Assembly (NCBI RefSeq): GCF_039724765.1
Contig: NZ_CP155729.1
Coordinates: 1,364,001-1,428,000, forward strand
Reading direction: 5' to 3'
Source: Sagittula stellata E-37
GTDB lineage: Bacteria; Pseudomonadota; Alphaproteobacteria; Rhodobacterales; Rhodobacteraceae
Length of the DNA stretch: 64,000 nt
Positions within the stretch are counted from its first letter, which is position 1; each line of letters starts with the position of its first letter. Under the pieces are notes generated by a model. The model ran no database searches and had not been told where the DNA came from. It was given only the letters and a program-made list of their open reading frames with translations. The position numbers and the translations under genes are program-made. Shown here in pieces: positions 27,681 to 60,670 of this stretch.

Positions 27681-28521
27681 GGTTCAGGACCCATTGATTT
27701 GGTTGAGCGAGCGTGATTCACCGTTCGAAAACGAGCGGTGAACATGTCTGATCTCTACTGGTTGAGCGATGCGCAGATGGCGCGTCTGGAGCCTTACTTC
27801 CCCAAGTCGCACGGCAAGCCCCGGGTTGATGACCGGCGCGTTCTGAGCGGTATTATCTTTATCAATCGCAATGGATTGCGGTGGCGAGATGCGCCAAGGG
27901 AATACGGCCCGCACAAGACACTCTACAACCGCTGGAAGCGGTGGAGCGATAGAGGCGTCTTCGCCCGGATCATGGCCGGGCTGGCGGGCGAGCATGGTGA
28001 GGAGACGACCGTGATGATCGACGCAACTCATCTGAAGGCCCATCGCACGGCGTCCAGCCTGGGCGTGAAAAAGGGGGGCGTGGACGGCTGATTGGCCGGA
28101 CGAAGGGAGGCATGAACACGAAGTTGCACGCCGTCTGCGACAGCCATGGCCGGCCCATCGACCTGTTCCTGACTGCCGGCCCCGTCAGCGACTACATCGG
28201 GGCGCGTGCGCTGGTCGGCGGGCTGCCAGACGTGAAATGGCTGCTCGGAGATCGCGGCTACGATGCCGACTGGTTCAGAGAAGCCTTGCAAGACAAGAAG
28301 ATACGCCCTTGCATCCCGGGCCGGACGAAACGGAAGACGCCCGTCCCGTACGACAAGCGCAGGTACAAGCGTCGCAACCGGATCGAGATCATGTTCGGCA
28401 GGCTCAAGGATTGGAGACGGGTGGCGACCCGTTATGACCGATGCCCAAAGACCTTCTTCTCAGCGATCGCACTCGCTGCGACCGTGATCTTCTGGCTTTG
28501 AGAGAGAACGAGTCCTGACCC
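27681..28521 (+). mobile_element. IS5-family (IS427-like) insertion sequence, copy 1
   Basis: 841 bases. The left end GGTTCAGGAC and right end GTCCTGACCC are inverted repeats with one mismatch. Both sides are flanked by TA (27679-27680 and 28522-28523), the target duplication. It carries one transposase in two overlapping frames. It is inserted in a DUF4145-type gene, and removing the element plus one TA restores the reading frame exactly. Copy 2 at 28733 is in the same orientation and differs at one base that I found. Confidence 0.93.
27744..28501 (+). CDS. IS5-family transposase (two frames, probable -1 frameshift), copy 1
   Basis: The first frame (27744-28091, or from GTG 27738) begins MSDLYWLSDAQMARLEPYFP and carries the first catalytic Asp in TVMIDATHLKAH. 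The second frame lies at -1, contains the ORF 28112-28501, and has the second Asp in LLGDRGYDADWFRE and the Glu in IEIMFGRLKDW. A slippery heptamer G GGG GGC (28073-28079) lies just before the first-frame stop. Slipping there reads GGRGRLIGRTKGGMNTKLHA, the continuous family sequence. The DDE triad is therefore complete in the fusion product, so the element is probably active. Confidence 0.9.
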
Positions 28522-28732: not shown

Positions 28733-29573
28733 GGTTCAGGACCCATTGATTTGGTTGAGCGAGCGTGATTCACCGTTCGAAAACGAGCGGTGAACATGTC
28801 TGATCTCTACTGGTTGAGCGATGCGCAGATGGCGCGTCTGGAGCCTTACTTCCCCAAGTCGCACGGCAAGCCCCGGGTTGATGACCGGCGCGTTCTGAGC
28901 GGTATTATCTTTATCAATCGCAATGGATTGCGGTGGCGAGATGCGCCAAGGGAATACGGCCCGCACAAGACACTCTACAACCGCTGGAAGCGGTGGAGCG
29001 ATAGAGGCGTCTTCGCCCGGATCATGGCTGGGCTGGCGGGCGAGCATGGTGAGGAGACGACCGTGATGATCGACGCAACTCATCTGAAGGCCCATCGCAC
29101 GGCGTCCAGCCTGGGCGTGAAAAAGGGGGGCGTGGACGGCTGATTGGCCGGACGAAGGGAGGCATGAACACGAAGTTGCACGCCGTCTGCGACAGCCATG
29201 GCCGGCCCATCGACCTGTTCCTGACTGCCGGCCCCGTCAGCGACTACATCGGGGCGCGTGCGCTGGTCGGCGGGCTGCCAGACGTGAAATGGCTGCTCGG
29301 AGATCGCGGCTACGATGCCGACTGGTTCAGAGAAGCCTTGCAAGACAAGAAGATACGCCCTTGCATCCCGGGCCGGACGAAACGGAAGACGCCCGTCCCG
29401 TACGACAAGCGCAGGTACAAGCGTCGCAACCGGATCGAGATCATGTTCGGCAGGCTCAAGGATTGGAGACGGGTGGCGACCCGTTATGACCGATGCCCAA
29501 AGACCTTCTTCTCAGCGATCGCACTCGCTGCGACCGTGATCTTCTGGCTTTGAGAGAGAACGAGTCCTGACCC
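28733..29573 (+). mobile_element. IS5-family (IS427-like) insertion sequence, copy 2
   Basis: 841 bases, with the same ends as copy 1. It is flanked by TA at 28731-28732 and 29574-29575. The only difference I found from copy 1 is a synonymous C/T in the first transposase frame (GCC against GCT in an Ala codon). Two independent insertions into one gene, each with its own TA duplication, indicate recent activity of this IS in the genome. Confidence 0.93.
28796..29553 (+). CDS. IS5-family transposase (two frames, probable -1 frameshift), copy 2
   Basis: Same two-frame organisation as copy 1: first frame 28796-29143, second frame with ORF 29164-29553, slippery G GGG GGC at 29125-29131. The predicted protein is identical to copy 1. 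Confidence 0.9.
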
Positions 29574-44574: not shown

Positions 44575-45840
44575 CTATATGCGCCCGTTCGCGAGATGGG
44601 TCAGGGTCGCGCCGGTCTCGTAGTAAAGGCTTTTGGCGCCGGCGTAGGCTTCGGGCTGCGGGTCCTGGACCGGCAGCGGCAGATCGCCGGTGCCAAGCGC
44701 CCAATCTGCGGCGGCACGGCCAAAGAGCGTGCCGGGGGAAATGCCGCGCCCGCTGTAGCCGAAGATGGAAATGCCGGTGCGCCCGCGCCGTTCGATGCGG
44801 GGCAGGTGGGTGCCGGTCATCGCGATGCGCCCGGTCCAATGCTGCTCGAACGGGATGCCCGCCAGTTGCGGGAAGACCTTCGCCATCTTGCGCGTGGCCC
44901 AGCCGCGATGCAGCGCGCCGCCGAAACCGTCGAGATTGCCGAGCGCGCCAAAGATCATCCGACCCGCCCGATCGAGGCGGAAGGACGACATGATCATCGC
45001 CGTGTCCCAGCAGCCTTCGCCGCCGGACAGGATGCTTTGCCGCAGATCGTCGGGCAGGGGGGCGGTGGCCAGTTGGAAGAAATGCGCCGGAATGATCGCG
45101 TTGTCATCCGCCGCGCCCGTGCCATAGGCATTGGTGGCCTGGATCAGCCGCGCCGCGCGCACCTCGCCCTGTGCCGTTCGGATCGTCCAGCCGTCAGAGG
45201 TTTCCGCCATGCTCAGGGCGCCCGTTTCCTCGAAGATCCGCGCGCCCTGAGCCGCTGCCGCACTGGCCAGCCCCTGAACATAGGCCAGCGGCTGTATGGT
45301 GCCGGCCCGCCCGTCCCAGAGCGCGCCGTAGTACGCCGTACTGCCCGTGCGCCGCGCGGTTTCTTCCGCGTCCAGCAGCTTGACCGGCGCGCCACGCGCC
45401 TCTTGCTGGGCAAAGCGGTTTTCCAGATCGCGCAGGCCAGCCATCGAGTGGGCACAGTGCAGCGTCCCATTCCGTGTCGCCTCGCAGCGGATCTGGTGCT
45501 TCTCGATCAGCTCGAAGACCGTTGCGGGGCCGGTGGCGAGCAGGTCGTTCAGCCCGCCTCCGGTTGTCTGGCCAAGCGTCTTTTCCACGTCGTCCGGCGG
45601 CGTCCAGAGCCCCGCGTTGACAAGGCCGACGTTGCGGCCCGACCCGCCATAGCCAATGGTCCGCGCCTCCAGCAGCGCGACCGAGGCGCCACCGGCGGCC
45701 AGATGATAAGCCGCCGAGACGCCGGTGAAGCCGCCGCCGATGACGGCGACATCGACGGCGATCTTGTCACGCAGAGGTGCATAGGGGGTCCGGTCGGGCG
45801 CGGTGTCGGACCAGAGGCTGTCGAGGCGCGGATCGGTCAT
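44575..45840 (-). CDS. FAD-dependent amine oxidoreductase (DAO family; L-pipecolate oxidase-like)
   Basis: 421 residues. The dinucleotide-binding start is VDVAVIGGGFTGVSAAYHLA, followed by GYGGSGRNVGLVNAG, which matches the GRNGG-type FAD motif of the PuuB/OrdL/AmaA group. The C-terminal FAD contact is SIFGYSGRGISPGTLFG. It oxidises a secondary or primary amine with O2 or a quinone. The start overlaps the stop of the ALDH7-type dehydrogenase by four bases. That pairing matches AmaA/AmaB of L-lysine degradation through pipecolate, so pipecolate or a related cyclic amine is the best guess. Gamma-glutamylputrescine is an alternative. Confidence 0.8.
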   Translation of the reverse strand: MTDPRLDSLWSDTAPDRTPYAPLRDKIAVDVAVIGGGFTGVSAAYHLAAGGASVALLEARTIGYGGSGRNVGLVNAGLWTPPDDVEKTLGQTTGGGLNDLLATGPATVFELIEKHQIRCEATRNGTLHCAHSMAGLRDLENRFAQQEARGAPVKLLDAEETARRTGSTAYYGALWDGRAGTIQPLAYVQGLASAAAAQGARIFEETGALSMAETSDGWTIRTAQGEVRAARLIQATNAYGTGAADDNAIIPAHFFQLATAPLPDDLRQSILSGGEGCWDTAMIMSSFRLDRAGRMIFGALGNLDGFGGALHRGWATRKMAKVFPQLAGIPFEQHWTGRIAMTGTHLPRIERRGRTGISIFGYSGRGISPGTLFGRAAADWALGTGDLPLPVQDPQPEAYAGAKSLYYETGATLTHLANGRI

Positions 45841-47339
45841 ATCTCGAACGAAATGCCTTGGGCGAGCGGCAGCTCGCGCGAGTAGTTCACCGTGCTGGTC
45901 TGACGGCGCATGTAGGCGCGCCATGCGTCCGATCCGCTTTCGCGCCCGCCGCCGGTTTCCTTTTCGCCGCCGAAGGCTCCGCCGATTTCCGCGCCCGAAG
46001 GCCCGATGTTGACGTTGGCGATGCCGCAGTCAGAGCCTTGCGCCGAGAGGAAATGCTCGGTCTCGCGTAGATCGGTAGAGAAGATGCACGACGACAGGCC
46101 CTGCGGCACCGCGTTCTGCATCGCGATGGCCGCGTCGAGGTCGGTGTATTTCATCGCGTAGAGGATCGGCGCGAAGGTTTCGGTGTGCACGATGGCGCTT
46201 TGCGCGGGCATTTCGACGATGGCGGGGGCGACATAGGCCGCATCGGGGTATTGATCCGTCAACGCCCGGCCACCGCCATGGACGGTGCCGCCTTCGGCGC
46301 AGGCCTGTTCCAGCGCCTTCTCCATCGCCGTCATGGCACCTGCGTCGATCAACGGGCCGACAAGGGTGCCGGCCTCAAGCGGGCTGCCGATGGAAAGCCC
46401 TTCGTAAACCTTGGTCAGGCGCGGGATCAGCTGGTCGTAGATGTCTTCGTGCACGATCAGGCGGCGCAGCGAGGTGCAGCGCTGGCCCGCCGTGCCGACG
46501 GCGGAAAAGACAATCGCCCGCACGGCCATTTCCAGATCCGCCGAAGGGGCGACGATCATCGCGTTGTTGCCGCCGAGTTCAAGGATCGTCTTGCCCAGCC
46601 GTTTGGACATGTCCGCCGCGACCGCCTTGCCCATGGGCACGGAGCCGGTTGCCGAGATCAGCGCCACATCGCGCGAGGCGGTCAGGACCTCGCCCAGGTC
46701 GCGTTCGCCGATCAGGGTCTGGATCAGGCCCTCGGGCGCGTCCCCGCCGAAGGCCGCCATGGCGCGGTCGCAGATCTTCTGGATCGCCAGCTGGGTCAGC
46801 GGGGTCTTCTCGGACGGCTTGGCGATGACCGGATCGCCGCAGACCAGCGCCAGCGCGGCGTTCCAGCACCACGGCGCTGCGGGGAAGTTGAAGGCGGTGA
46901 TGATGCCGCAAACCCCAAGCGGGTGCCATGTTTCGCGCATCGAGTGGCCGGGCCGTTCCGACGCGATGGTCAGACCATAAAGCTGACGCGACAGGCCGAC
47001 CGCGAAGTCGCAGATGTCGATCATCTCCTGCACCTCGCCCAGCCCCTCCTGATAGATCTTGCCGCATTCCAGCGACACGAGGCGGCCGAGGTTCTCCTTT
47101 TCGCGGCGCAGCTCTTCGCCGAGAAGGCGCACGAGTTCGCCCCGCCGTGGCGCGGGGACCTTGCGCCATGCCTCGAAGGCCTCAACCCCCTTGGCAATCG
47201 CGGCCTCGGCGTCGGCGACCGAGTGCATTGGAACCCGGGCGATTTCGCTGCCGTCCACAGGGGTGGTGACGGAAAGCGTGCCGCCGGTGGTTTCCGCCGC
47301 GGTCAGGCCGCAGGCGTCGAGAATGTGCTGGTAGGTCAT
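45837..47339 (-). CDS. ALDH7-type aldehyde dehydrogenase (L-aminoadipate-semialdehyde dehydrogenase-like)
   Basis: 500 residues. The catalytic Cys lies in GTAGQRCTSLRRL and the general-base Glu in LELGGNNAM. The C-terminal signature GIANVNIGPSGAEIGGAFGG then EKETGGGRESGSDAWRAYMR is diagnostic of family 7 (antiquitin/AmaB). It oxidises alpha-aminoadipate semialdehyde to alpha-aminoadipate with NAD in lysine catabolism. The start codon overlaps the stop of an aminotransferase remnant (ATGA), and the stop overlaps the oxidase start, so it is the core of a compact operon. Confidence 0.9.
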   Translation of the reverse strand: MTYQHILDACGLTAAETTGGTLSVTTPVDGSEIARVPMHSVADAEAAIAKGVEAFEAWRKVPAPRRGELVRLLGEELRREKENLGRLVSLECGKIYQEGLGEVQEMIDICDFAVGLSRQLYGLTIASERPGHSMRETWHPLGVCGIITAFNFPAAPWCWNAALALVCGDPVIAKPSEKTPLTQLAIQKICDRAMAAFGGDAPEGLIQTLIGERDLGEVLTASRDVALISATGSVPMGKAVAADMSKRLGKTILELGGNNAMIVAPSADLEMAVRAIVFSAVGTAGQRCTSLRRLIVHEDIYDQLIPRLTKVYEGLSIGSPLEAGTLVGPLIDAGAMTAMEKALEQACAEGGTVHGGGRALTDQYPDAAYVAPAIVEMPAQSAIVHTETFAPILYAMKYTDLDAAIAMQNAVPQGLSSCIFSTDLRETEHFLSAQGSDCGIANVNIGPSGAEIGGAFGGEKETGGGRESGSDAWRAYMRRQTSTVNYSRELPLAQGISFEI

Positions 47340-48921: not shown

Positions 48922-50316
48922 TCATGTTGCGTATCGTGTCGCGCCCCGTCGCGCCGTGTCGACCGGGGTCGAGAGCACCAAGGCCTGGTGGGCGCGCTGG
49001 TCGCAGTTGGCGCGGGGGCAGATGCGGCAGTTGATGCCGATCTCGGTGGGGCGGGCCTCGGTCAGGTTGAGGTCCTCGGCGTAGCCCAGGGCGTCGGCGT
49101 GATCGCGGGCGCAGCCCATGGCCACGGCAAGGCGGATGTCCTGCGCGTGGCGGGTGAAGGTGGGCCGGTCGACGGTGCGCGCGAAGACGAAGAACTGCGA
49201 CCGGTCCGGCATCTCGACCACCTGCGGCACGATGCGGCCGGGCGTGCGGAACACGGAGTGGACCTCAAGCCTCGGGCAGGCGCCGCCGTACTCGGCCAAG
49301 TGGAAGTCCGTGGCGTTGAAGCGCTTGGTGACGTTTCCCGCCTTGTCGATCCGGAGGAAGAAGAAGGGGATGCCGCGGTGCCCCGTGCGCTGGAGCGTGG
49401 TGGCGCGGTGGCAGGCCTGTTCGAACGAGACGCCGAAGCGGGTGGCGAGGTGGTCGAAGTCGTACTTGGAGGCCCGCGCTTCGGCCAGGAAGCGGTCGTA
49501 GGGCATGAGCACGGCGGCGGCGAAGTAGTTCGCCAGTTCGACCCGGCAGCGGGCGCGGCCGTGGGCGTCTTCCAGCCCGGCCTCGGTCAGGATGGCGTCG
49601 AGCAGGTCGGCCTGTTCGAGAAGGCCCGCGACATGCACGAGCTGGAACAGGCGGTTGGGGTGGTCGAGGGCTTCGGAGAGGCGGACCTCGCCCTGGGACT
49701 GGTCGTATTCGCGCAAGGAGGCGGGCATCTCGGCCACGGGGGCGATGCGGACACGCAGGCCAAGCTGCTGGCGCAGGCGGGATTTCAGGGCGAAGTACAT
49801 GTCGTCGGCGGCGACGGGCGCGTCCCAGAAGGCTTCGGCTGCGGCTTCGAGGCGGGGGAAGTGGTTGTCGTGGCGGCGGAAGACGTTGTGGACGACGGCC
49901 TCGGGCGCGGTCGGCAGGACCGATTCCTCGCCTGCGGCGGCCACGGACATGAGCTGATCGGTGGCGGCGAGATAGGCGCGGTGCAGCATGACGAAGGCCT
50001 GCGCGAGGTCCGGGCTGTGCGCGAGGCTGGCGCGCAGTTGCGGCAGATCGGGTCGGTGACCTTCGAAAAGCGGGTCCTGGAGGGCGGCGCGGATGTCGGC
50101 GAGGGCGGCGGTGTCGTCGTCTTCCGCGATGTCGCGCCAATCGACGCCGTAGGCTTCGAACAGCTTCAGGAGGACCGGGACAGAGACCGATCTTTCGTTC
50201 TTTTCCAAAAGGTTGACGTAAGAGGTGGAGATGCCGAGTTCCTTCGCCATCTGGACCTGTGTCTGACCGTGTTCGATGCGCAGGCGCCTGAGGCGCGGGC
50301 CGATGAAGGTTTTCAT
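48922..50316 (-). CDS. ScfR/PccR/RamB-type short-chain acyl-CoA regulator (XRE + IrrE-like domain)
   Basis: 464 residues. The N-terminal XRE helix-turn-helix is IGPRLRRLRIEHGQTQVQMA then LGISTSYVNLLEKNER. The central region is ImmA/IrrE-like, but its zinc-protease H-E-x-x-H is replaced by VHVAGLLE, so it is probably non-catalytic. The C-terminal domain ends with Cys-rich INCRICPRANCDQRA, as in the family. Relatives control propionyl-CoA carboxylase, the glyoxylate shunt or central carbon choice by sensing acyl-CoA. It is divergent from the glyoxylate/mesaconyl-CoA operon, with repeated TTTTACA motifs at 50321-50371. Confidence 0.88.
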   Translation of the reverse strand: MKTFIGPRLRRLRIEHGQTQVQMAKELGISTSYVNLLEKNERSVSVPVLLKLFEAYGVDWRDIAEDDDTAALADIRAALQDPLFEGHRPDLPQLRASLAHSPDLAQAFVMLHRAYLAATDQLMSVAAAGEESVLPTAPEAVVHNVFRRHDNHFPRLEAAAEAFWDAPVAADDMYFALKSRLRQQLGLRVRIAPVAEMPASLREYDQSQGEVRLSEALDHPNRLFQLVHVAGLLEQADLLDAILTEAGLEDAHGRARCRVELANYFAAAVLMPYDRFLAEARASKYDFDHLATRFGVSFEQACHRATTLQRTGHRGIPFFFLRIDKAGNVTKRFNATDFHLAEYGGACPRLEVHSVFRTPGRIVPQVVEMPDRSQFFVFARTVDRPTFTRHAQDIRLAVAMGCARDHADALGYAEDLNLTEARPTEIGINCRICPRANCDQRAHQALVLSTPVDTARRGATRYAT

Positions 50317-50320
50317 AGTA

Positions 50321-50371
50321 TTTTACAGTATACAGAATTTGACACTTTTACAATTGTGAGGGTTTGTAAAA
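50321..50371. promoter_or_regulatory. Operator/promoter region between scfR-like gene and sgaA operon
   Basis: TTTTACA occurs at 50321-50327 and 50346-50352, and its complement TGTAAAA at 50365-50371, so the last two form an inverted repeat with a 12-base spacer. A consensus -35 TTGACA (plus strand, 50339-50344) lies between them. The -10 must fall within the TTTGTAAAAT around 50363-50372, overlapping the dyad. The arrangement suits repression or activation of the operon and autoregulation by the ScfR-type protein. Confidence 0.6.
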
Positions 50372-50456
50372 TTTCGCGTTCACAGCAGGACCCGGTTTGG
50401 TTTCCGCTTTGTGGGCAGACCGCGCATGTTGGCGTCAGCGAAGAGGAGGCGCCATT

Positions 50457-51653
50457 ATGCAAAGCGGTTACACCCATCTGTTCATTCCCGGTCCCACGAA
50501 CGTCCCGGAGGTGGTGCGACAGGCGATGAACGTGCCGCAGCAGGACATGCGCGCCCCTGACTTCGCCGAGTTCACGCTGCCGCTGTTCGAGGGCCTGAAG
50601 CGGGTCTTCAAGACGACGAACGGCGAGGTGATGATGTTCCCCGGCTCCGGCACCGGCGCGTGGGAGGCGGCGATCACCAACACGCTGAACCCCGGCGACA
50701 AGGTGCTGATGTCGCGCTACGGGCAGTTCTCGCACCTCTGGGTGAAGATGGCGGAGATGCTGGGGCTGGACGTGATCTGTGTCGATGTGCCCTGGGGCGC
50801 GGGTGTGCCGTGGAAGGAATACGGGCGTATCCTCGGCGCCGACAAGGACGACGAGATCAAGGCGGTCTTCGTCACCCACAACGAGACGGCGGCGGGCGTG
50901 GTCAGCGACGTGGCCGCGGTGCGCCGGGTGATGGACGAATGCTTCCATGATGCGCTGCTGTTCGTGGACGGGGTGTCCTCGGTCGCCTCGGTCGATTTCC
51001 GGATGGACGAATGGGGCGTCGACCTTGCCGTGACGGGTTCCCAGAAGGGGCTGATGATGCCTGCGGGCCTCGGCATCCTCGGTGTCAGCCAGAAGGCCAT
51101 GGCGGTGTCTAAGACCGCGCGGATGCGCCGGGCCTACTTCGACTTCGAGGACATGGTGAACATCAACCGCAGCGGCTATTTCCCGTACACTCCCCCGACC
51201 CCGCTCCTGCATGGCCTGCGCGCTTCGCTCGACCTTTTGGAGCGGGAAGGGCTGGAGAACGTCTTTGCCCGCCACGCGCGGCTTGCCGAGGGCGTGCGCC
51301 GGGGTGTGAAGGCCATGGGGCTGGACCTGGTGGCGGAGCATCCGTCGCTGATGTCCGACACGGTCAGCGCGATCCGTGTGCCGCCGGAGGTGGACGCACG
51401 CGAGGTGCTGCGCATCGCCTACGAGGAACTGAACGCCTCTTTCGGGTCTGGCCTGGCGCGGCTGGCGGGCAAGGTGTTCCGCATCGGCCACCTCGGCAGC
51501 TTCAACGAGGGTATGGCGCTGACGGCGCTTGGCCTGGCGGAGCTGGCGCTGGTCAAGGCGGGCGCGAAGGTGCCGCTGGGCGCCGGGGTGGCCGCCGCCT
51601 CGTCTTATTTCGCCGAAGGCGCGCAGAGCGGCCTCAGGCTGGCGGCGGAATAA
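50457..51653 (+). CDS. sgaA: Serine-glyoxylate aminotransferase-like enzyme (class V)
   Basis: 398 residues. The class V aminotransferase fold starts with HLFIPGPTNVPEVVRQAM. The PLP Lys is K197 in VTGSQKGLMMPAG, and the C-terminal RIGHLGSFNE holds the substrate-binding Arg. The family converts serine plus glyoxylate to hydroxypyruvate plus glycine; the close relative BhcA uses aspartate as donor. GAGGAGGC precedes ATG 50457; the in-frame upstream extension lies in the regulatory region. It opens the mcl-mtkAB-meh-mct operon and links it to glyoxylate. Confidence 0.88.
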   Translation: MQSGYTHLFIPGPTNVPEVVRQAMNVPQQDMRAPDFAEFTLPLFEGLKRVFKTTNGEVMMFPGSGTGAWEAAITNTLNPGDKVLMSRYGQFSHLWVKMAEMLGLDVICVDVPWGAGVPWKEYGRILGADKDDEIKAVFVTHNETAAGVVSDVAAVRRVMDECFHDALLFVDGVSSVASVDFRMDEWGVDLAVTGSQKGLMMPAGLGILGVSQKAMAVSKTARMRRAYFDFEDMVNINRSGYFPYTPPTPLLHGLRASLDLLEREGLENVFARHARLAEGVRRGVKAMGLDLVAEHPSLMSDTVSAIRVPPEVDAREVLRIAYEELNASFGSGLARLAGKVFRIGHLGSFNEGMALTALGLAELALVKAGAKVPLGAGVAAASSYFAEGAQSGLRLAAE

Positions 51654-51745
51654 CCCCGCCTTTTCGAACGCATTCAACGACCGGACGCCTGTCGGCCGCT
51701 CCCATCAGGGGCGCGGTCCGGGAGGCTCTGACCAAGGAGGACATC

Positions 51746-52705
51746 ATGTCTCATACGCTTCACCCCCTGCGAAAGCAGCGCCTGCACCGCTCTGAGCTGG
51801 CTGTGCCCGCGTCCAACCCCGCCATGGTCGAGAAGGCCGCCGACAGTGCCGCCGACTATGTGTTCCTCGATCTTGAGGACGCCGTTGCGCCGCCCGAGAA
51901 GGACCAGGCGCGCAAGAACGCGGTGGAACTGCTGAACGACATCGACTGGGCGGGGAAGGGCAAGACCGTGTCGGTGCGGATCAACGGGCTCGACACGCAT
52001 TACATGTACCGCGACGTGGTGGACATCATGGAAAAGGCGGGCGACCGGGTGGACACGCTGCTGGTGCCCAAGGTCGGTGTGGCCGCCGACCTCTACATGG
52101 TGGAGGCCATGGTCAACCAGATTGAGCAGGCCTGCGGGCTTGAGAACCGCGTGGGCCTTGAGGCGCTGATCGAGACGGCGCTGGGCATGGCCAACGTCGA
52201 AGCCATCGCGCAGTTCGGCGGACGGCTGGAGGCGCTGCACTTCGGGGTGGCGGATTACGCGGCCTCGATGCGGGCGCGGACGGTGAACATCGGCGGCCTG
52301 AACCCGGACTACCCGGGCGACCAGTGGCACGCCTCGATCAGCCGGATGGTGGTGGCCTGCCGCGCCTACGGGCTGCGGGCGGTGGACGGGCCGTTCGGCG
52401 ATTTCAGCGATCCGGAGGGCTATGTCGCCGGGGCAAAGCGCGCCGCCGCATTGGGCTGCGAGGGCAAGTGGGCGATCCACCCCAGCCAGATCGCCATGGC
52501 CAACGACGTGTTCAGCCCGCCGGAGGCGGAGGTCACGAAGGCGCAACGCATCATCGAGGAGCTGAAGGCGGCAGAGGCTGCAGGCAAGGGCGCGGCGAGC
52601 CTCGACGGCAAGATGATCGACGCGGCCAGCGAAAAGATGGCGCGCAATGTGATCGACATGGCGAACGCCATCGCCGCGAAGTCGCAGCCGATCGCGGCGG
52701 AATAA
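51746..52705 (+). CDS. mcl1: L-malyl-CoA/beta-methylmalyl-CoA lyase
   Basis: 319 residues. A CitE-like TIM barrel with LAVPASNPAMVEKAADSAAD, VFLDLEDAVAPPEKDQARKN, ALIETALGMANVEAIA and GKWAIHPSQIAMANDVFSPP, matching the Rhodobacter Mcl1 type. It reversibly cleaves malyl-CoA to glyoxylate and acetyl-CoA, and methylmalyl-CoA to glyoxylate and propionyl-CoA. AAGGAGGACATC precedes the ATG. The adjacent malate-CoA ligase and mesaconyl-CoA genes fit both reactions. Confidence 0.92.
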   Translation: MSHTLHPLRKQRLHRSELAVPASNPAMVEKAADSAADYVFLDLEDAVAPPEKDQARKNAVELLNDIDWAGKGKTVSVRINGLDTHYMYRDVVDIMEKAGDRVDTLLVPKVGVAADLYMVEAMVNQIEQACGLENRVGLEALIETALGMANVEAIAQFGGRLEALHFGVADYAASMRARTVNIGGLNPDYPGDQWHASISRMVVACRAYGLRAVDGPFGDFSDPEGYVAGAKRAAALGCEGKWAIHPSQIAMANDVFSPPEAEVTKAQRIIEELKAAEAAGKGAASLDGKMIDAASEKMARNVIDMANAIAAKSQPIAAE

Positions 52706-52838
52706 AGCTCTTTTGGCGAAGAGGGCGGCGGCGCGAAGCCCCGCCCTACGAGAGCACCCGCAGGCGGCGGGGTGGTTCGGCGTGCCCGGCGGGGCGGTGG
52801 GGTGAACCCCCACCCTACGGAATGGAGGAGAGACGAAC

Positions 52839-54020
52839 ATGGACATTCATGAGCATCAGGCCAAGGACATCCTGAAAGGCTTTGGCGTGCCGGTGCCGAA
52901 GGGCTTCGTGGCCTATTCGCCGGAGCAGGCGGCCTATTGCGCCCGCGCGCTGGGCGGCGCGGGCCCTTGGGTCGTGAAGGCGCAGGTACATTCCGGCGGC
53001 CGAGGCGAGGCGGGCGGCGTCAAGCTGTGCAAGACCGATGCGGAGGTCATGGACTACGCCGCCTCGCTTCTGGGCACGCGGCTGGTGACGAAGCAGACCG
53101 ATGCGCAGGGCAAGGGGGTTTACCGGCTGTATGTCGAGGAGGCGTCCGACATCGCGCAGGAGTTGTACCTGGGTTTCGTGCTGGACCGGAAGTCGGAGCG
53201 CATCATGATCGTCGCCTCCGGCCATGGCGGGATGGAGATCGAGGACCTCGCGCATGAGGACCCCGACAGCCTGGTCCGGTCGGTGATCGACCCGGCGGTG
53301 GGCCTGCGGGAATACCAGGCGCGCGATTTAGGCTTTCGGCTGGGGCTGACCGGGCCGCAGGTGACGCAGTTCGTGACCTTCCTGCAGGCCTGCTACCGGG
53401 CGTACCGCGATCTCGACGCGATGATGGTGGAGATCAATCCGCTGGTCATCACCGGGAAAGGCGATCTGGTGGCGCTGGATGCGAAGATGTCCTTCGACAC
53501 CAACGCGCTTTATCGCCGCCCGCAGGTGGCAGCGCTGCGCGATCCCGGACAGGAGGACCCGCGCGAGGCGATGGCCGCCGACAACGGGCTGGCCTACGTG
53601 GGGCTGGACGGCGACATCGGGTGCATCATCAACGGTGCGGGCCTCGCCATGGCGTCGATGGACATGATCCAGCTTGCCGGGGGGCAGCCCGCGAATTTCC
53701 TCGACATCGGCGGCGGCGCCTCGCCCGAACGGGTCTGCCAGGCGTTCCGCACCGTTTTGTCGGACCGAAACGTCAGCGTGATCCTCGTGAACATCTTCGC
53801 GGGCATCAACCGCTGCGACTGGATCGCGAAGGGGGTGATCCGGGCCTACACGGACGTGGGTATCGAGATCCCCGTGGTGGTCCGACTGTCGGGCACCAAC
53901 GTCGAGGAGGGCCGGAAGATCATCCGCGAGAGCGGCCTGCCGATCATCTCCGCCGACACGCTGGCCGAGGCCGCCGACAGGGCCGTGGCGGCCGCTTCGC
54001 AGAAAATCGCAGCAGAATAA
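52839..54020 (+). CDS. mtkA: Malate-CoA ligase beta subunit (SucC-like)
   Basis: 393 residues. The ATP-grasp start is [20 protein letters not shown], then [20 protein letters not shown] and [20 protein letters not shown]. The CoA-ligase core has [20 protein letters not shown] and [16 protein letters not shown]. Sequence alone cannot fully separate succinate from malate specificity, but the operon with malyl-CoA lyase and serine-glyoxylate aminotransferase points to malate thiokinase. The 133 bases before it hold G+C-rich hairpins (for example GGTGGGGTGAACCCCCACC near 52794). Confidence 0.87.
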
Positions 54021-54067
54021 CCGCCCCACGCGCCGCACGGGCGGCAGGGCAGAAAGGACATTCCCAG

Positions 54068-54964
54068 ATGGCAATTCTGATCAAGGACACCACGCGGGTC
54101 GTCGTGCAGGGTCTTTCGGGGCGCATCGGCCAGTTCCACGCGCAGGAGATGATCGAATACGGCACGAAGGTCGTCGCCGGGGTCACGCCGGGCAAGGGCG
54201 GCACCACGGTGCTGAACCGACCCGTCTTCAACACCGTCCGCGAGGCGGTGGAGCAGACCGGCGCGACCGCCTCGCTGCTGTTCGTGCCGCCGGCCTTTGC
54301 CGCCGACGCCATGATGGAGGCGGCGGAGGCGGGCATCGAGACGGCGGTCTGCGTGACCGACGGCATCCCGGCGCAGGACATGATGCGGGTGAAGCGCTTC
54401 CTTCGCCGCTTCCCGCGCGACCGCAAGATGCGGCTGATCGGGCCGAACTGCGCGGGCATCATCAGCCCGGGGCAGGGCTTCATGGGCATCATGCCGCCGC
54501 ACATCTACACGGCGGGCCGCGTGGGCATCATCGGCCGCTCGGGCACACTGGGCTACGAGGCGGCCAGCCAGATGCAGGCGCTTGGGATCGGGATTTCCTC
54601 GTCCATCGGGATCGGCGGCGATCCGATCAACGGTTCGAGTTTCCGCGATATCCTCGAACTCTTCGAGAACGACCCCGACACCGACGCCGTGATGATGATC
54701 GGCGAGATCGGCGGCCCGCAGGAAGCGGAGGCGTCGGAATACGTCCGCGATCACATGACGAAACCCGTCGCGGCCTACATCGCGGGTCTCGCCGCACCCA
54801 AGGGCCGCAAGATGGGCCATGCCGGCGCGATCATCTCGGCCTTCGGGGAGAGCGCGCAGGAGAAGGTGGACATGCTGTCCGCTGTCGGCATCACCGTCGC
54901 CCCCAACCCCTCGGCCATGGGCGAGACCGTCGCCCGGATGCTGGGCATGAAGGAAGCGGCATGA
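54068..54964 (+). CDS. mtkB: Malate-CoA ligase alpha subunit (SucD-like)
   Basis: 298 residues. The Rossmann start is TRVVVQGLSGRIGQFHAQEM, and the CoA-binding region is VTPGKGGTTVLNRPVFNTV. The phospho-carrying His is H251 in KMGHAGAIISAFGE. LIGPNCAGIISPGQGFMGIM is typical. It pairs with the beta subunit 47 bases upstream. The frame is open far upstream, but the family start and AAGGACATTCCCAG fix ATG 54068. The stop overlaps the next gene (ATGA). Confidence 0.88.
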   Translation: MAILIKDTTRVVVQGLSGRIGQFHAQEMIEYGTKVVAGVTPGKGGTTVLNRPVFNTVREAVEQTGATASLLFVPPAFAADAMMEAAEAGIETAVCVTDGIPAQDMMRVKRFLRRFPRDRKMRLIGPNCAGIISPGQGFMGIMPPHIYTAGRVGIIGRSGTLGYEAASQMQALGIGISSSIGIGGDPINGSSFRDILELFENDPDTDAVMMIGEIGGPQEAEASEYVRDHMTKPVAAYIAGLAAPKGRKMGHAGAIISAFGESAQEKVDMLSAVGITVAPNPSAMGETVARMLGMKEAA

Positions 54965-55830
54965 GCGCGTCGTCCCTGATGGAACCGGACCACGCCGCCT
55001 GGATCGGGCGCACGCAGACCGTCGAAGGGGGTGTGACGCCCAACCTCGCCGGGATGCTCGGCGCGGCGGTCGGCCACGATCTCTCCCCGGACCGCGACCT
55101 GCGGGCCGGACAGCCGCTGCCCAGTCTCTGGCACTGGGTGGCGTTCCCCGAGTTCGTCCAGATGTTCGATCTGGGCGAAGACGGGCATCCGGCGCTGGGT
55201 GGCTTCCTCCCTCCCTTGCCGTTCCGGCGCCGAATGTGGGCGGGGGGCTGCGTCGCCTTCAAGGGGCGCTTCCACGTGGGCGAGCGTCTGGCCAAAGTCT
55301 CGACCATCCGCGCCGTGACGATGAAGGAGGGGGCGACGGGCCGCATGGCCTTTGTCACCGTCGATCACGTCACCACGGGCACCGAGGGCGGCACGGTCGA
55401 GGAGGAACAGAACATCGTCTACCTCGACATCCCCAAAACCTTCCGCCCACCGAAACAGACCCCGGTGCCCGACCGGCTGGCCTATGACGAACGGGTGCCG
55501 ATGAACGAGGTCCGGCTCTTCCGTTACTCGGCGGCGACGTACAATGCGCACCGCATCCACTACGATCTGCCTTACGCGCAGCAGGTGGAGAAGTATCCAG
55601 GCTTGGTCGTGCATGGCCCGATGCAGGCCACCATGGCGATCGAGGCGGCGGAACGGCACACCGGCCGCACGCCCGCGCGGTTCAGCTACCGCGTGGTGCA
55701 CCCGATGTTCCACGACAGCGACCTGCGGCTGGTGGGCGCGCTGGACCCGGCGGGCGGCGCGATCGAGATCGGAACGGCGACCTTCGAGGACTACCTCGGG
55801 CTGAAGGCAAGGATGGAGTGGGCGGCATGA
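54961..55830 (+). CDS. meh: MaoC-family hydratase, mesaconyl-C4-CoA (3-methylfumaryl-CoA) hydratase-like
   Basis: 289 residues, the double-hot-dog length of HTD2-like hydratases. LPSLWHWVAFPEFVQM, DGHPALGGFLPPLPFRRRMW and AGGCVAFKGRFHVGERL form the first half. The second half has LFRYSAATYNAHRIHYDLPY then VEKYPGLVVHGPMQATMAIE, where the catalytic Asp-His pair of the family lies in NAHRIHYD. The pattern resembles Chloroflexus Meh, which hydrates mesaconyl-C4-CoA to citramalyl-CoA; itaconyl-CoA hydratase is a close alternative. ATGA overlaps join it to mtkB and to the following transferase. Confidence 0.8.
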   Translation: MSASSLMEPDHAAWIGRTQTVEGGVTPNLAGMLGAAVGHDLSPDRDLRAGQPLPSLWHWVAFPEFVQMFDLGEDGHPALGGFLPPLPFRRRMWAGGCVAFKGRFHVGERLAKVSTIRAVTMKEGATGRMAFVTVDHVTTGTEGGTVEEEQNIVYLDIPKTFRPPKQTPVPDRLAYDERVPMNEVRLFRYSAATYNAHRIHYDLPYAQQVEKYPGLVVHGPMQATMAIEAAERHTGRTPARFSYRVVHPMFHDSDLRLVGALDPAGGAIEIGTATFEDYLGLKARMEWAA

Positions 55831-57062
55831 GTATCCTGACAGGCATGCGCGTGGTCGAAAGCTCCGCCTTCGTGGCGGTGCCGCTGGCCGGTATGACATT
55901 GGCGCAGATGGGCGCGGACGTGATCCGCTTCGACCTGCCGACGGGCGGCATGGACGCGAAACGCTGGCCGGTGACGCGGGACGGGCAAAGCCTTTTCTGG
56001 GCCGGGATGAACAAGGGCAAACGCTCGGTCGCACTGGATGTGAAATCGCCGCGCGGACGGGAAATCGCGCAGGAAATCATCTGCGCCCCCGGGCCGGATG
56101 CGGGCCTGTTCATCACCAACCTCGCGGTCAAGGGCTGGACCGATTACGACACCCTGTCGCAGCGGCGCGGCGACCTCTGCATGGTGCAGCTGCGCGGCGA
56201 CCGGCACGGCCGCCCGGCGGTGGACTACACGGTGAACCCGCAGTTGGGTTTCCCGATGGCCACGGGGGGGAAGGGCTCGGCCGACCCGGTCTGCCACGTC
56301 CTGCCGGCCTGGGACTGCATCGCCGGCAACATGGTGGTCAGCGGGCTTCTGGCCGCGGAACGCCACCGGCTGCGCACTCGTCAGGGGCAGTTAGCCGATC
56401 TGACCCTGAAGGACGCGGCCAGCGCGATGCTCGGCAACCTCGGGATCATCGGCGAGGTGCAGGTCAACGGCGAGACCCGCGAGAAACACGGCAATGCGCT
56501 CTACGGGGCCTACGGTCAGGATTTTCTCTGCGCCGACGGACGGCGGGTGATGGTCATCGCCCTGACGCTGCGCCAGTGGAAGACCCTCTGCCGGGTGACC
56601 GGAACGGAGACCGACATGAACTACCTGTCGGGGGCACTGAACGCCGATCTGGACACCGAAGCCGCCCGCTGGGAACACCGCGCCGCCATCACCAAGGTGC
56701 TGACGCCCTGGTTCGCGGCACGCGGCCTCGCCGATTTCGCCGATCTCTTCGACAAGGCTGGCGTCACATGGTCGGTCTTCCGCAGCTTCGCCGAGGCCGT
56801 GGCGGAGGACCCCGACATCTCCACCGCCAACCCGATGTTCGCCGAGATCGACCAGCCCGGCGTCGGGCGGATGCTGACCCCCGGCTCGCCGTTCAGCTTC
56901 GCGGGCTACGGGCGCGACAAACCCCGTCCCGCCCCGATCCTCGGCCAGCACACCGAGGAGGTGCTCGCCGACGTGGCCCGCCTCACGGACGGAGAGATCG
57001 GTCGCCTCATCGACGATGGCGTGGCCATGCAGCCGGGCGACCGCCTGCGCATGGCCTCCTGA
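55827..57062 (+). CDS. mct: Family III CoA-transferase, mesaconyl-CoA C1-C4 CoA transferase (2-methylfumaryl-CoA isomerase)-like
   Basis: 411 residues. GMRVVESSAFVAVPLAGMTL then MGADVIRFDLPTGGMDAKRW, and LFWAGMNKGKRSVALDVKSP, followed by DYTVNPQLGFPMATGG. The catalytic Asp is D163 in VCHVLPAWDCIAGNMV, the position used by CaiB/BaiF enzymes. VESSAFVA, DxKRWPVTxDG and VNPQLG are shared with Chloroflexus Mct, which moves CoA within mesaconate intramolecularly. The alternative is an itaconate or citramalate CoA-transferase. It is the last gene of the operon. Confidence 0.82.
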   Translation: MSILTGMRVVESSAFVAVPLAGMTLAQMGADVIRFDLPTGGMDAKRWPVTRDGQSLFWAGMNKGKRSVALDVKSPRGREIAQEIICAPGPDAGLFITNLAVKGWTDYDTLSQRRGDLCMVQLRGDRHGRPAVDYTVNPQLGFPMATGGKGSADPVCHVLPAWDCIAGNMVVSGLLAAERHRLRTRQGQLADLTLKDAASAMLGNLGIIGEVQVNGETREKHGNALYGAYGQDFLCADGRRVMVIALTLRQWKTLCRVTGTETDMNYLSGALNADLDTEAARWEHRAAITKVLTPWFAARGLADFADLFDKAGVTWSVFRSFAEAVAEDPDISTANPMFAEIDQPGVGRMLTPGSPFSFAGYGRDKPRPAPILGQHTEEVLADVARLTDGEIGRLIDDGVAMQPGDRLRMAS

Positions 57063-57353: not shown

Positions 57354-58251
57354 TCAGCGGTCCGAAGCCGCGCCGACCCGGCGGACGACCTCGGCGATGC
57401 GCGCGAACTGCCCCGCCATGGGCGAGGACTTCCGCCAGACCATGCCGATGGTGCGCGACGGCTGGGGCTCGGCGAAATGCGCGACAGAGACCTGCGCCGC
57501 GCCGGTTTCCACCGGGACGGCCATCTCTGGGATCAGCGTGACGCCGATTCCCGCGCCGACCATCTGCACCAGCGTCGTCAGCGACGAGCCGTCCAGCCCG
57601 TCGCGCGGCATGGCCGATCCCAGCTTGCAGAACGACAGCGCCTGGTCCCGGAAACAGTGGCCTTCCTCCAGCAGCAACAGGCGCATTTTCTGAAGCGCTT
57701 CGCCGTCGGGCACCGGTTTTTCCGCGTCGTGGTCGGGCCGCACGAGCACGAATGTCTCATCGAAAAGGGCCACCTCGGTCAACGCCGGTTCGGAGATCGG
57801 CAGCGCGAGGATGGCGGCGTCGATGCGGCCATCGTGCAGCTCGGCGATCAGGCGCGGGGTCAGGGTTTCGCGGACGCGCAGGTCCAGGCCGTCGAACTCG
57901 GCCGACAGGTGACCCACCAGCCGGGGCAGCAGGTAAGGCGCGATGGTCGGGATGATGCCCAGCCGCAACCGCCCGATGTGGCCGCCTTGTGCGCTGCGGG
58001 CGAGGTCGCCCAGCTCGTCCACGGAACGCAGGATCTCCGTCACCCGTTGCCGGAACGTCTCGCCGAAGCCGGTCAGACGCACGGAGCGCGGCCCGCGTTC
58101 GAACAGCGGCATGGCAAGCTCGGCCTCCAGTTCCTTGATCTGCACCGACAGGGCCGGCTGCGATATCGCGCAGCTAACGGCGGCATGGCCAAAATGCCCC
58201 TTCTGGGCGAGCGCCTCGAAATAGCGCAACTGTTTCAGGGTGATGTTCTTC

Positions 58252-58253
<2 letters not shown>
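57354..58253 (-). CDS. oxyR: Hydrogen peroxide-responsive regulator OxyR (LysR family)
   Basis: 299 residues. The winged helix is MKNITLKQLRYFEALAQKGH with SQPALSVQIKELEAEL. The redox pair is C200 and C209 in EEGHCFRDQALSFC, matching the peroxide-sensing Cys of E. coli OxyR (199/208) in position and spacing. It is divergent from katG, the classical target. An ATAA-N7-TTAT dyad overlaps its own start codon, suggesting autoregulation. Confidence 0.94.

Positions 58254-60670
<2,417 letters not shown>

What the first reader, a model, noticed from the sequence alone, without database searches (positions are those of the whole stretch)
50457..57062. Operon joining serine-cycle-type glyoxylate chemistry to the mesaconyl-C4-CoA route of the 3-hydroxypropionate bicycle
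Six co-directional genes encode SgaA-like aminotransferase, malyl/methylmalyl-CoA lyase, malate-CoA ligase (two subunits), a Meh-like hydratase and an Mct-like intramolecular CoA transferase, with ATGA overlaps at mtkB/meh and meh/mct. In Chloroflexus, Mcl, Mch, Mct and Meh convert glyoxylate plus propionyl-CoA to citramalyl-CoA, then acetyl-CoA plus pyruvate. Here only mesaconyl-C1-CoA hydratase (Mch) is missing, and many Rhodobacteraceae encode Mch elsewhere for the ethylmalonyl-CoA pathway. This would make a heterotrophic, non-autotrophic co-assimilation module. A mesaconate or itaconate degradation role is the main alternative.
Basis: partly seen in the sequence, partly recalled or inferred. 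Interest (0 to 1): 0.82.

Follow-up and report, generated by a model that had tools for sequence, protein, structure and literature searches.

The report
Mesaconyl-CoA-to-pyruvate operon in marine bacteria
A conserved, dedicatedly regulated set of genes in marine and salt-lake bacteria seems to turn an intermediate of acetate use directly into pyruvate, by a route that the papers I found describe only as an artificial design.

Summary
The operon is real: AT, mcl, mtkA, mtkB, meh and mct lie co-directionally at 50457-57062, with ATGA overlaps at mtkB/meh and meh/mct. Its multi-box operator is in 37 of 38 scfR-operon gaps compared (window included) and its core occurs once in the whole genome. 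The full cassette is in 26 of 58 testable relatives; meh precedes mct in 76 of 79. Mct keeps the catalytic Asp and Arg and is 54% identical to Chloroflexus Mct. Meh does not group with the Pseudomonas itaconyl-CoA hydratases tested. What feeds Mct is open: neither mch nor mcd lies near mct in any of the 80 relatives, but more distant lineages place mcd (5 of 40 loci) or mch (1 of 40) beside it. I favour mesaconyl-C1-CoA from the ethylmalonyl-CoA pathway going through Mct, Meh and Mcl to pyruvate plus acetyl-CoA, with MtkAB and Mcl splitting malate. The favoured route is in print as an artificial design (PMC10521678); seven open-library searches listed no natural case. No activity is shown.

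The parts
48922..50316 (-). scfR: ScfR/RamB-like regulator (HTH, IrrE-like and ScfR C-terminal domains), divergent from the operon
   Evidence: PF09856 195 bits, cut-off 24; RamB model 354 bits, below its cut-off of 700; one of 3 in the genome; three of 227 plasmid hits were viewed: beside serine-cycle-type genes, icl, and ms-icl
50339..50386 (.). predicted ScfR operator: TTGACA and TTTACA boxes 40 and 32 bases before TTCACA, with a TGTAAA half-site between
   Evidence: footprint over 38 intergenic regions, window included; 22-bp core found once in the 5.29-Mb genome at up to 3 mismatches, reversed-pattern control 0; binding not shown
50457..51653 (+). AT: class V glyoxylate aminotransferase, BhcA/SgaA-like
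   Evidence: BhcA model 563.7 bits, cut-off 650; best PDB match serine-glyoxylate aminotransferase 6pk1, 398 bits; a copy over the BhcA cut-off lies elsewhere
51746..52705 (+). mcl: malyl-CoA/beta-methylmalyl-CoA lyase; citramalyl-CoA cleavage inferred
   Evidence: best PDB 5ugr malyl-CoA lyase 399 bits, then 4l9y 308 bits; a second Mcl-type protein 47% identical at C1:1019680
52839..54020 (+). mtkA: malate-CoA ligase beta subunit
   Evidence: PRK14046 674.9 bits, over cut-off 604; a separate succinate-CoA-ligase-like pair, 49-50% identical, in L113
54068..54964 (+). mtkB: malate-CoA ligase alpha subunit
   Evidence: succinate-CoA ligase alpha model 423.6 bits, over cut-off 336; start chosen from homologues
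54961..55830 (+). meh: FAS1-DH/MaoC-type hydratase, mesaconyl-C4-CoA hydratase-like
   Evidence: PF13452 34.7 bits, cut-off 22; only PDB matches are itaconyl-CoA hydratase 8khg and the MaoC-domain protein 8huc, about 171 bits; tree apart from Ich
55827..57062 (+). [quoted passage not shown]
   Evidence: TIGR04253 509 bits, below cut-off 725; PDB 8apq and 7xkg about 481 bits; 54% identity; Asp165 and Arg47 kept

Best explanation
The operon cleaves two dicarboxyl-CoA thioesters with one lyase. (1) Mct moves CoA within mesaconyl-C1-CoA to give mesaconyl-C4-CoA, Meh hydrates it to (S)-citramalyl-CoA, and Mcl splits that into acetyl-CoA and pyruvate. [quoted passage not shown] I think the main source of mesaconyl-C1-CoA is the ethylmalonyl-CoA pathway (Ccr, Ecm, Mcd), so the net reaction is acetyl-CoA + CO2 + reductant to pyruvate, bypassing Mch, propionyl-CoA and the methylmalonyl-CoA branch. 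The divergent ScfR protein switches the operon on through the conserved operator, probably when a CoA ester of that pathway builds up. Shown from sequence: gene identities at family level, conservation, the conserved operator-like block, presence of Mch, Ccr and bhcABCD genes. Inferred: every catalytic step, direction, feed, inducer, ScfR binding, and citramalyl-CoA cleavage by this Mcl.
For: Mct keeps Asp165 and Arg47 in 115 of 115 other aligned sequences, 76 from the 80 close loci and 39 from the 40 class loci (roles from passages of PMC9196870). meh precedes mct in 76 of 79 relatives. An Mcd-like gene adjoins mct or meh in 5 of 40 class loci (L122, L133, L136, L137, L155) and lies two genes from mct in Azospirillum ramasamyi (L169); two of these proteins match 6es9 at 681 and 736 bits (that 6es9 is Paracoccus Mcd is recalled, the table says only acyl-CoA dehydrogenase). 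Ccr, a mutase and Mch are in the genome. The ethylmalonyl-CoA pathway's Mcd makes the C1 ester (PMC12290011 passages). The operator core (17 to 22 of 22 positions) stands in 37 of 38 scfR gaps, among them all 6 where meh is the first cassette gene (L061 has a 77-aa ORF between). RamB of Paracoccus is divergent to ms-icl and responds to ethylmalonyl-CoA-pathway CoA esters (PMC10370305 passages); its two boxes with an 18-bp spacer imply a 32-base period by my arithmetic, and a TTTACA-like repeat (5 of 6 or better) stands at 32 in 25 of 38 rows. The net route is costed as feasible (-39 +/- 9 kJ/mol) in PMC10521678, section 3.4 read whole.
Against: No Mcd-like gene lies near mct in any of the 80 close loci, so the mcd neighbours come only from distant lineages. 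Mcd was not found in the window's own genome: no genome search was left, and it is not in the stretches fetched. Across 318 alphaproteobacteria mct is not associated with ccr: 19 of 48 mct genomes against 87 of 270 others, p = 0.32. The subset at 54% identity or more gives 7 of 10 (p = 0.04 against the other mct genomes, 0.03 against genomes without mct), a cut chosen after seeing the data. The five mcd-mct genomes have no ccr match, so they support the Mcd-to-Mct step and not the Ccr feed. In the family 20 of 21 mct genomes have ccr, but so do 115 of 128 others (p = 0.69). In the footprint the 40-base repeat (33 of 38) is commoner than the RamB-like 32 (25 of 38). Mct misses its curated cut-off, and Arg314 of the Roseiflexus enzyme is Gly here. 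MtkAB beside Meh-Mct also fits the rival, which needs glyoxylate. AT is replaced by a short ORF in 5 loci, and meh is missing in L029, L044 and L074.
Confidence: 0.47

Rival explanations
1. [quoted passage not shown]
For: Mch present. MtkAB and Mcl in the same operon would make glyoxylate. meh-mct lies between a malic-enzyme-like gene and a propionate-CoA-ligase-family gene in 5 loci (L064, L076, L079, L080, L091; ligase 710 bits, below its cut-off of 955). One distant locus is mct-meh-mch (L148). 29 of 48 mct genomes of the class have no ccr match.
Against: No mch in any of the 80 close loci (the same is true of mcd, so this does not separate the two). In 40 class loci mch adjoins in 1 and an Mcd-like gene in 5. 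Propionyl-CoA already has a carboxylase-like pair beside its own ScfR gene. Mch must run against its ethylmalonyl-CoA-pathway direction in the same cell.
Confidence: 0.27
2. The module degrades free C5 acids (itaconate, mesaconate, methylsuccinate) after activation by MtkAB or a CoA-transferase.
For: Meh's only PDB relatives are itaconyl-CoA hydratase-type. The mct-mcd loci without ccr may handle methylsuccinate.
Against: No C5-acid CoA-transferase gene in the cassette; MtkA passes the malate-CoA ligase cut-off; Meh lies outside the Ich rows with full support; itaconate breakdown needs no C1-C4 transfer.
Confidence: 0.07
3. The enzymes run backwards as a CoA-ester form of the 'citramalate cycle': pyruvate + acetyl-CoA to citramalyl-CoA, mesaconyl-C4- and C1-CoA, then glyoxylate + propionyl-CoA.
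For: The enzymes of this proposed cycle in purple bacteria are unsettled (PMC8307300 passages); Rhodobacter Mcl can form citramalyl-CoA with a large excess of pyruvate (PMC3832036 passages).
Against: Citramalyl-CoA formation was reported only at high excess of pyruvate; the genome already has Ccr for acetate.
Confidence: 0.07
4. Mct and Meh have shifted to another acyl-CoA in this lineage, and the operon serves an unrelated route.
For: Curated Mct cut-off missed; Arg314, Ser132 and Glu133 contact positions replaced in all or nearly all of the 76 close sequences (Ser132 kept in 1); in 31 of 40 class loci no Meh match lies near mct, although some have other MaoC-like genes.
Against: Asp165, Arg47 and Asn100 invariant in 115 of 115; steady pairing with a Meh-type hydratase in the close loci and, in 31 of 58, with a malyl-CoA lyase and MtkAB upstream as well.
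Confidence: 0.1

Closest known systems
Second half of the 3-hydroxypropionate bicycle (Chloroflexus, Roseiflexus)
   Same: Mcl, Mct, Meh chemistry, with Mch elsewhere in the genome
   Different: Malate activated by a ligase, not a CoA-transferase; Mcl nearest to 5ugr (Methylobacterium, by recall); operon with an ScfR regulator; Ccr present; [quoted passage not shown]
Ethylmalonyl-CoA pathway (Cereibacter/Rhodobacter sphaeroides)
   Same: Ccr, a mutase, Mch, a second Mcl-type gene and a CitE-like gene beside mch are in the genome
   [quoted passage not shown] Mcd not located
Reductive citramalyl/ethylmalonyl-CoA pathway of PMC10521678
   Same: Same reaction list from acetyl-CoA to pyruvate
   Different: Presented there as a designed module; here inferred from natural genes
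RamB-ms-icl locus of Paracoccus denitrificans (PMC10370305)
   Same: Divergent ScfR gene, adjoining acetyl-CoA/glyoxylate operon, paired boxes
   Different: Target operon is AT-mcl-mtkAB-meh-mct; a 40-base repeat is commoner than the 32-base one; the Paracoccus protein itself was not compared, and the window's ScfR is 42% identical to a Limimaricola ScfR beside ms-icl
Itaconate degradation cluster (CoA-transferase, Ich, citramalyl-CoA lyase)
   Same: Meh and Ich are homologous hydratases; both end at citramalyl-CoA
   Different: No itaconate CoA-transferase gene; has Mct and MtkAB

Membership tests
2-methylfumaryl-CoA isomerase (Mct, TIGR04253) | curated cut-off 725 bits | tested here: not met
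   509.2 bits; so Mct-like only
2-methylfumaryl-CoA isomerase (Mct, TIGR04253) | catalytic Asp165 and Arg47 | tested here: met
   present in the window protein and in 115 of 115 other aligned sequences
2-methylfumaryl-CoA isomerase (Mct, TIGR04253) | intramolecular C1-C4 transfer | not testable with these tools
   needs an enzyme assay
Mesaconyl-C4-CoA hydratase (Meh) | groups with the characterised Chloroflexus Meh | not tested
   no identified Chloroflexus Meh sequence was obtained
Itaconyl-CoA hydratase | groups with Pseudomonas Ich | tested here: not met
   13 Ich rows form one side, 100/100, without the window's Meh; all Ich rows came from one search
Malate-CoA ligase | MtkA curated cut-off 604 | tested here: met
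   674.9 bits
BhcA aspartate-glyoxylate aminotransferase | curated cut-off 650 | tested here: not met
   563.7 bits; another copy at C1:3301536 scores 699.8
ScfR family | PF09856 domain | tested here: met
   195.4 bits, cut-off 24
RamB equivalog (NF038139) | cut-off 700 | tested here: not met
   353.6 bits
RamB-type regulation | divergent to target, paired boxes with 18-bp spacer (32-base period by my arithmetic) | tested here: inconclusive
   divergent in the window; repeat at 32 in 25 of 38 rows but at 40 in 33 of 38; binding not shown
Ethylmalonyl-CoA pathway in this genome | Ccr, Ecm, Mcd, Mch, Mcl | tested here: inconclusive
   Ccr, a mutase, Mch and Mcl-type genes found; Ecm assigned from its place beside ccr (methylmalonyl-CoA mutase model 521 bits, below cut-off 876); Mcd not located
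[quoted passage not shown]

The most novel reading that the evidence does not exclude
Rhodobacterales naturally run the 'reductive citramalyl/ethylmalonyl-CoA pathway', described in the paper I read as an artificial design: an oxygen-tolerant, ferredoxin-free conversion of acetyl-CoA + CO2 (or stored polyhydroxybutyrate) to pyruvate, switched by an ScfR protein that senses the pathway's own CoA esters; with bhcABCD the same operon also completes the malate-splitting cycle that the same paper models as a variant of a synthetic design.
Probability: 0.36. Interest if true: 0.86.

Novelty: new variant of a known kind. Interest (0 to 1): 0.62.

Why it matters
If right, bacteria in about one in seven sampled genera of this family (21 of 149 have mct; how many carry the whole operon was not counted there) have an aerobic way to add CO2 to acetyl-CoA and get pyruvate without pyruvate synthase. 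That would change how acetate and storage-polymer use by these bacteria is modelled, give Mct and Meh a role outside autotrophy, and supply natural, already regulated parts for a pathway that engineers have designed. The clear operator and the presence of the operon in named, culturable genera (Sagittula, Mameliella, Roseicyclus) make it directly testable.

Tried and rejected
A crude GC-based gene caller picked antisense frames; it was replaced by a codon model, and the cassette counts use tblastn. PF19315 is not a usable test for bacterial Mch: it gave 36.8 bits inside the own Mch gene and rang nowhere at E 1e-30; PMC5592240 passages say that haloarchaeal and bacterial Mch evolved convergently. 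ICL: 0 of 149 family genomes at E 1e-60 with the control ringing in 3; so complete an absence is surprising and I do not lean on it. mct-ccr co-occurrence as proof of the ethylmalonyl-CoA feed: rejected. Acyl-CoA dehydrogenases beside mct in Paraburkholderia and Variovorax plasmids are only about 36-41% identical to the Mcd-like proteins and were not counted as Mcd. In the footprint one of 38 rows (L046) was cut short by a mis-set gene start; it stays in n = 38 and is not counted as carrying the operator. Only loci with an scfR hit above 60% identity and an aligned N terminus entered. The 40 class loci come from 37 of the 48 mct genomes, were picked by me, and several are cut by contig ends. 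In one search one of the 40 (L125) gave no Mct row.

Prior-art searches, all in the open PubMed Central library. No listed title or shown abstract start describes this operon. In all I saw passages of ten papers, and of one (PMC10521678) also one section in full, so this does not show that it is unpublished.
Full report
OBSERVATION. Window 50457-57062 holds six co-directional genes as described. MtkA passes its curated cut-off (674.9 against 604). Mct has TIGR04253 as best model but below cut-off (509 against 725), AT has BhcA as best model but below cut-off (564 against 650), and Meh has only a weak FAS1-DH Pfam hit (34.7 bits, cut-off 22). Against solved structures Mct matches 8apq (2-methylfumaryl-CoA isomerase) and 7xkg at about 481 bits, Mcl matches 5ugr at 399 and 4l9y at 308 bits, Meh matches only 8huc and 8khg (the latter named itaconyl-CoA hydratase) at about 171 bits, and AT matches a serine-glyoxylate aminotransferase at 398 bits. 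The two ATGA overlaps are exact.

CONSERVATION. The one genome-contig scan with Mct confirmed 212 relatives and kept the best 80, mostly Rhodobacterales by title. In the 58 loci holding at least 7 kb upstream, 26 keep scfR-AT-mcl-mtkA-mtkB-meh-mct, 5 keep all but a full AT, 22 keep meh only, 2 keep scfR and meh, 1 (L029) keeps AT-mcl-mtkA-mtkB without meh, and 2 keep none. meh precedes mct in 76 of 79. So meh-mct is the core pair, and the malate-splitting half is a frequent partner. Elsewhere meh-mct is followed by a CitE-like gene 30-33% identical to the window's Mcl (L072, L083, L084, L085, L093, L094, L095), or stands between a malic-enzyme-like gene and a propionate-CoA-ligase-family gene (5 loci; the ligase scores 710 against a cut-off of 955; the malic enzyme was named by eye). 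Neither mch nor an Mcd-like gene is found in any of the 80 loci (median 21.2 kb held).

REGULATION. The gene at 48922-50316 is an ScfR protein (PF09856), one of three in the genome. Another of the three lies beside a carboxylase gene pair that I read as pccB/pccA (the models that hit are biotin carboxylase and methylmalonyl-CoA decarboxylase alpha). The window's ScfR is 40% identical to that paralogue, 48% to one beside a serine-cycle-type cluster on a Paracoccaceae plasmid, 45% to one beside isocitrate lyase and 42% to one beside malate synthase-isocitrate lyase (three of 227 plasmid records with a hit were viewed). The scfR-operon gap carries a strongly conserved block in 37 of 38 rows (the window and 37 relatives; the core matches at 17 to 22 of 22 positions; the miss, L046, was cut short by my gene-start choice). 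TTTACA-like boxes lie 40 bases (33 of 38) and 32 bases (25 of 38) before the last box; chance per site is about 0.004 by simple shuffling. All 6 loci in which meh is the first cassette gene after scfR carry it (L061 has a 77-aa ORF between). The 22-bp core occurs once in the 5.29-Mb genome with up to 3 mismatches, with 0 for the reversed control. Paracoccus RamB, an ScfR protein divergent to ms-icl, uses two boxes with an 18-bp spacer and responds to CoA esters of the ethylmalonyl-CoA pathway, most to beta-methylmalyl-CoA (PMC10370305, passages). From its 80-bp fragment I infer 14-bp boxes and thus a 32-base period; the 40-base repeat, commoner here, is not explained by that.

GENOME CONTEXT. 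Mch: L113:3900-4928, 342 aa, 419 bits to 8hgn (beta-methylmalyl-CoA dehydratase) and 4e3e. Ccr: C1:3612080, 624.9 bits, over cut-off. A mutase gene is divergent to it. A second Mcl-type protein is 47% identical. A full bhcABCD set passes all four cut-offs at C1:3.30 Mb, so the window's AT is a paralogue. [quoted passage not shown]

OTHER LINEAGES. Of 318 alphaproteobacterial genomes 48 have an mct match at E 1e-90 and 106 have ccr; overlap 19, p = 0.32. In 40 fetched class loci (37 of the 48 genomes) 5 have an Mcd-like gene adjoining mct or meh: L122 and L133 (mct-meh-mcd), L137 and L155 (mct-mcd), and L136 (mcd-mct). The first four are all four mct genomes of family f86 in that sample; these five genomes have no ccr match. 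Azospirillum ramasamyi has an Mcd-like gene with two genes between it and mct. Two of the Mcd-like proteins match 6es9 at 681 and 736 bits, and 8ciw, named (2S)-methylsuccinyl-CoA dehydrogenase, at 265 and 280 bits. L148 is mct-meh-mch, its Mch 56% identical to the own one; L154 has mct beside a 29% relative of Mch. L146 has mct near a CoA-transferase-like gene and an Mcl-like gene. In 31 of 40 no Meh match lies near mct. The mcd, mch and meh contexts speak for mesaconyl-C1-CoA as Mct's substrate. They do not settle its source.

ACTIVE SITE AND PHYLOGENY. Asp165 and Arg47 (roles from PMC9196870, passages) are kept in 76 of 76 sequences from the 80 close loci and 39 of 39 from the class loci; Arg314 is Gly in 71 of the 76 and Ser in 5. 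In a 56-row Meh tree the window's protein groups with other cassette Mehs (100/100 for the 5-row set), and 13 Pseudomonas Ich rows form one side with full support. Limits: Ich rows came from one search, no identified Chloroflexus Meh was obtained, two long rows met, and the rows were chosen by hand.

MECHANISM. The common core, mesaconyl-C1-CoA to acetyl-CoA + pyruvate, I hold at about 0.75. For the feed I prefer Mcd of the ethylmalonyl-CoA pathway, because the regulator type, the distant mcd neighbours and the Ccr-positive background agree; the last is weak, 20 of 21 against 115 of 128 in the family, and the close relatives' neighbourhoods favour neither feed. Both could run under different substrates.

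NOVELTY. The route acetyl-CoA to pyruvate through ethylmalonyl-CoA, mesaconyl-CoA and citramalyl-CoA is given in PMC10521678 (section 3.4 read whole) as a designed module with a standard free energy of -39 +/- 9 kJ/mol. Seven searches of the open library listed no paper whose title or shown abstract start reports it as a natural pathway; subscription papers are not covered. A heterotrophic partial bicycle is already described for Kentron symbionts (PMC6593406, passages), so Mct/Meh outside autotrophy is not new in itself. What I found no report of is the operon with MtkAB, the dedicated ScfR switch and operator, the ethylmalonyl-CoA-pathway setting, and the mcd-mct gene neighbourhoods.

Noticed in passing
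window 52706-52838: The mcl-mtkA spacer (133 bp) is longer than in the 31 relatives measured (4-114) and contains GC-rich hairpin-forming sequence; a 24-bp part has near-copies at L114:13799-13822 and L165:13798-13821. The fold is not clearly better than shuffles (z -1.7). It looks like a small genomic repeat inside the operon and might lower downstream expression.
   Followed up: partly
window 27738-28501 and 28790-29553: Two copies, with the same lengths and printed protein starts, of a two-ORF transposase-like element side by side.
   Followed up: no
L030:5460-5948, L033:3222-3704 and matching places in L031, L035, L046: In 5 loci of Roseicyclus and relatives the aminotransferase is replaced by a shorter ORF (162 and 160 aa where printed); tblastn shows 32-37% AT-like remnants in L033 and L046.
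   Followed up: partly
L143 (G276) and L145 (G425): Alphaproteobacterial Mct proteins 75% and 71% identical to the Chloroflexus enzyme, above the other class members (46-64%): a possible gene transfer between phyla.
   Followed up: no
L123:2446-3696; loci such as L030:11243-12409: A kynureninase-like gene (named by eye) lies next to mct in G239 and, convergent, in 7 loci of Roseicyclus and relatives.
   Followed up: no
L029: This locus has AT-mcl-mtkA-mtkB-mct with no meh between mtkB and mct; whether meh lies elsewhere is unknown.
   Followed up: partly
window 57354-60670: oxyR-like and katG genes follow mct in all 8 loci L020-L027 and in the window.
   Followed up: no
window 45837-47339: Aldehyde dehydrogenase passing the L-piperidine-6-carboxylate dehydrogenase cut-off (800.7 against 730), near an FAD-oxidoreductase-like gene (named by eye) and a GcvA-like LysR regulator.
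   Followed up: no
L155:12015-12827 and L122:5540-6340: An unnamed conserved protein of about 270 aa recurs near mct-mcd in two genomes of family f86, together with RraA-like genes (named by eye).
   Followed up: no
149 family genomes: No isocitrate lyase match at E 1e-60 in any sampled genome, although isocitrate lyase is annotated on a Limimaricola plasmid; possibly a limit of the search.
   Followed up: no
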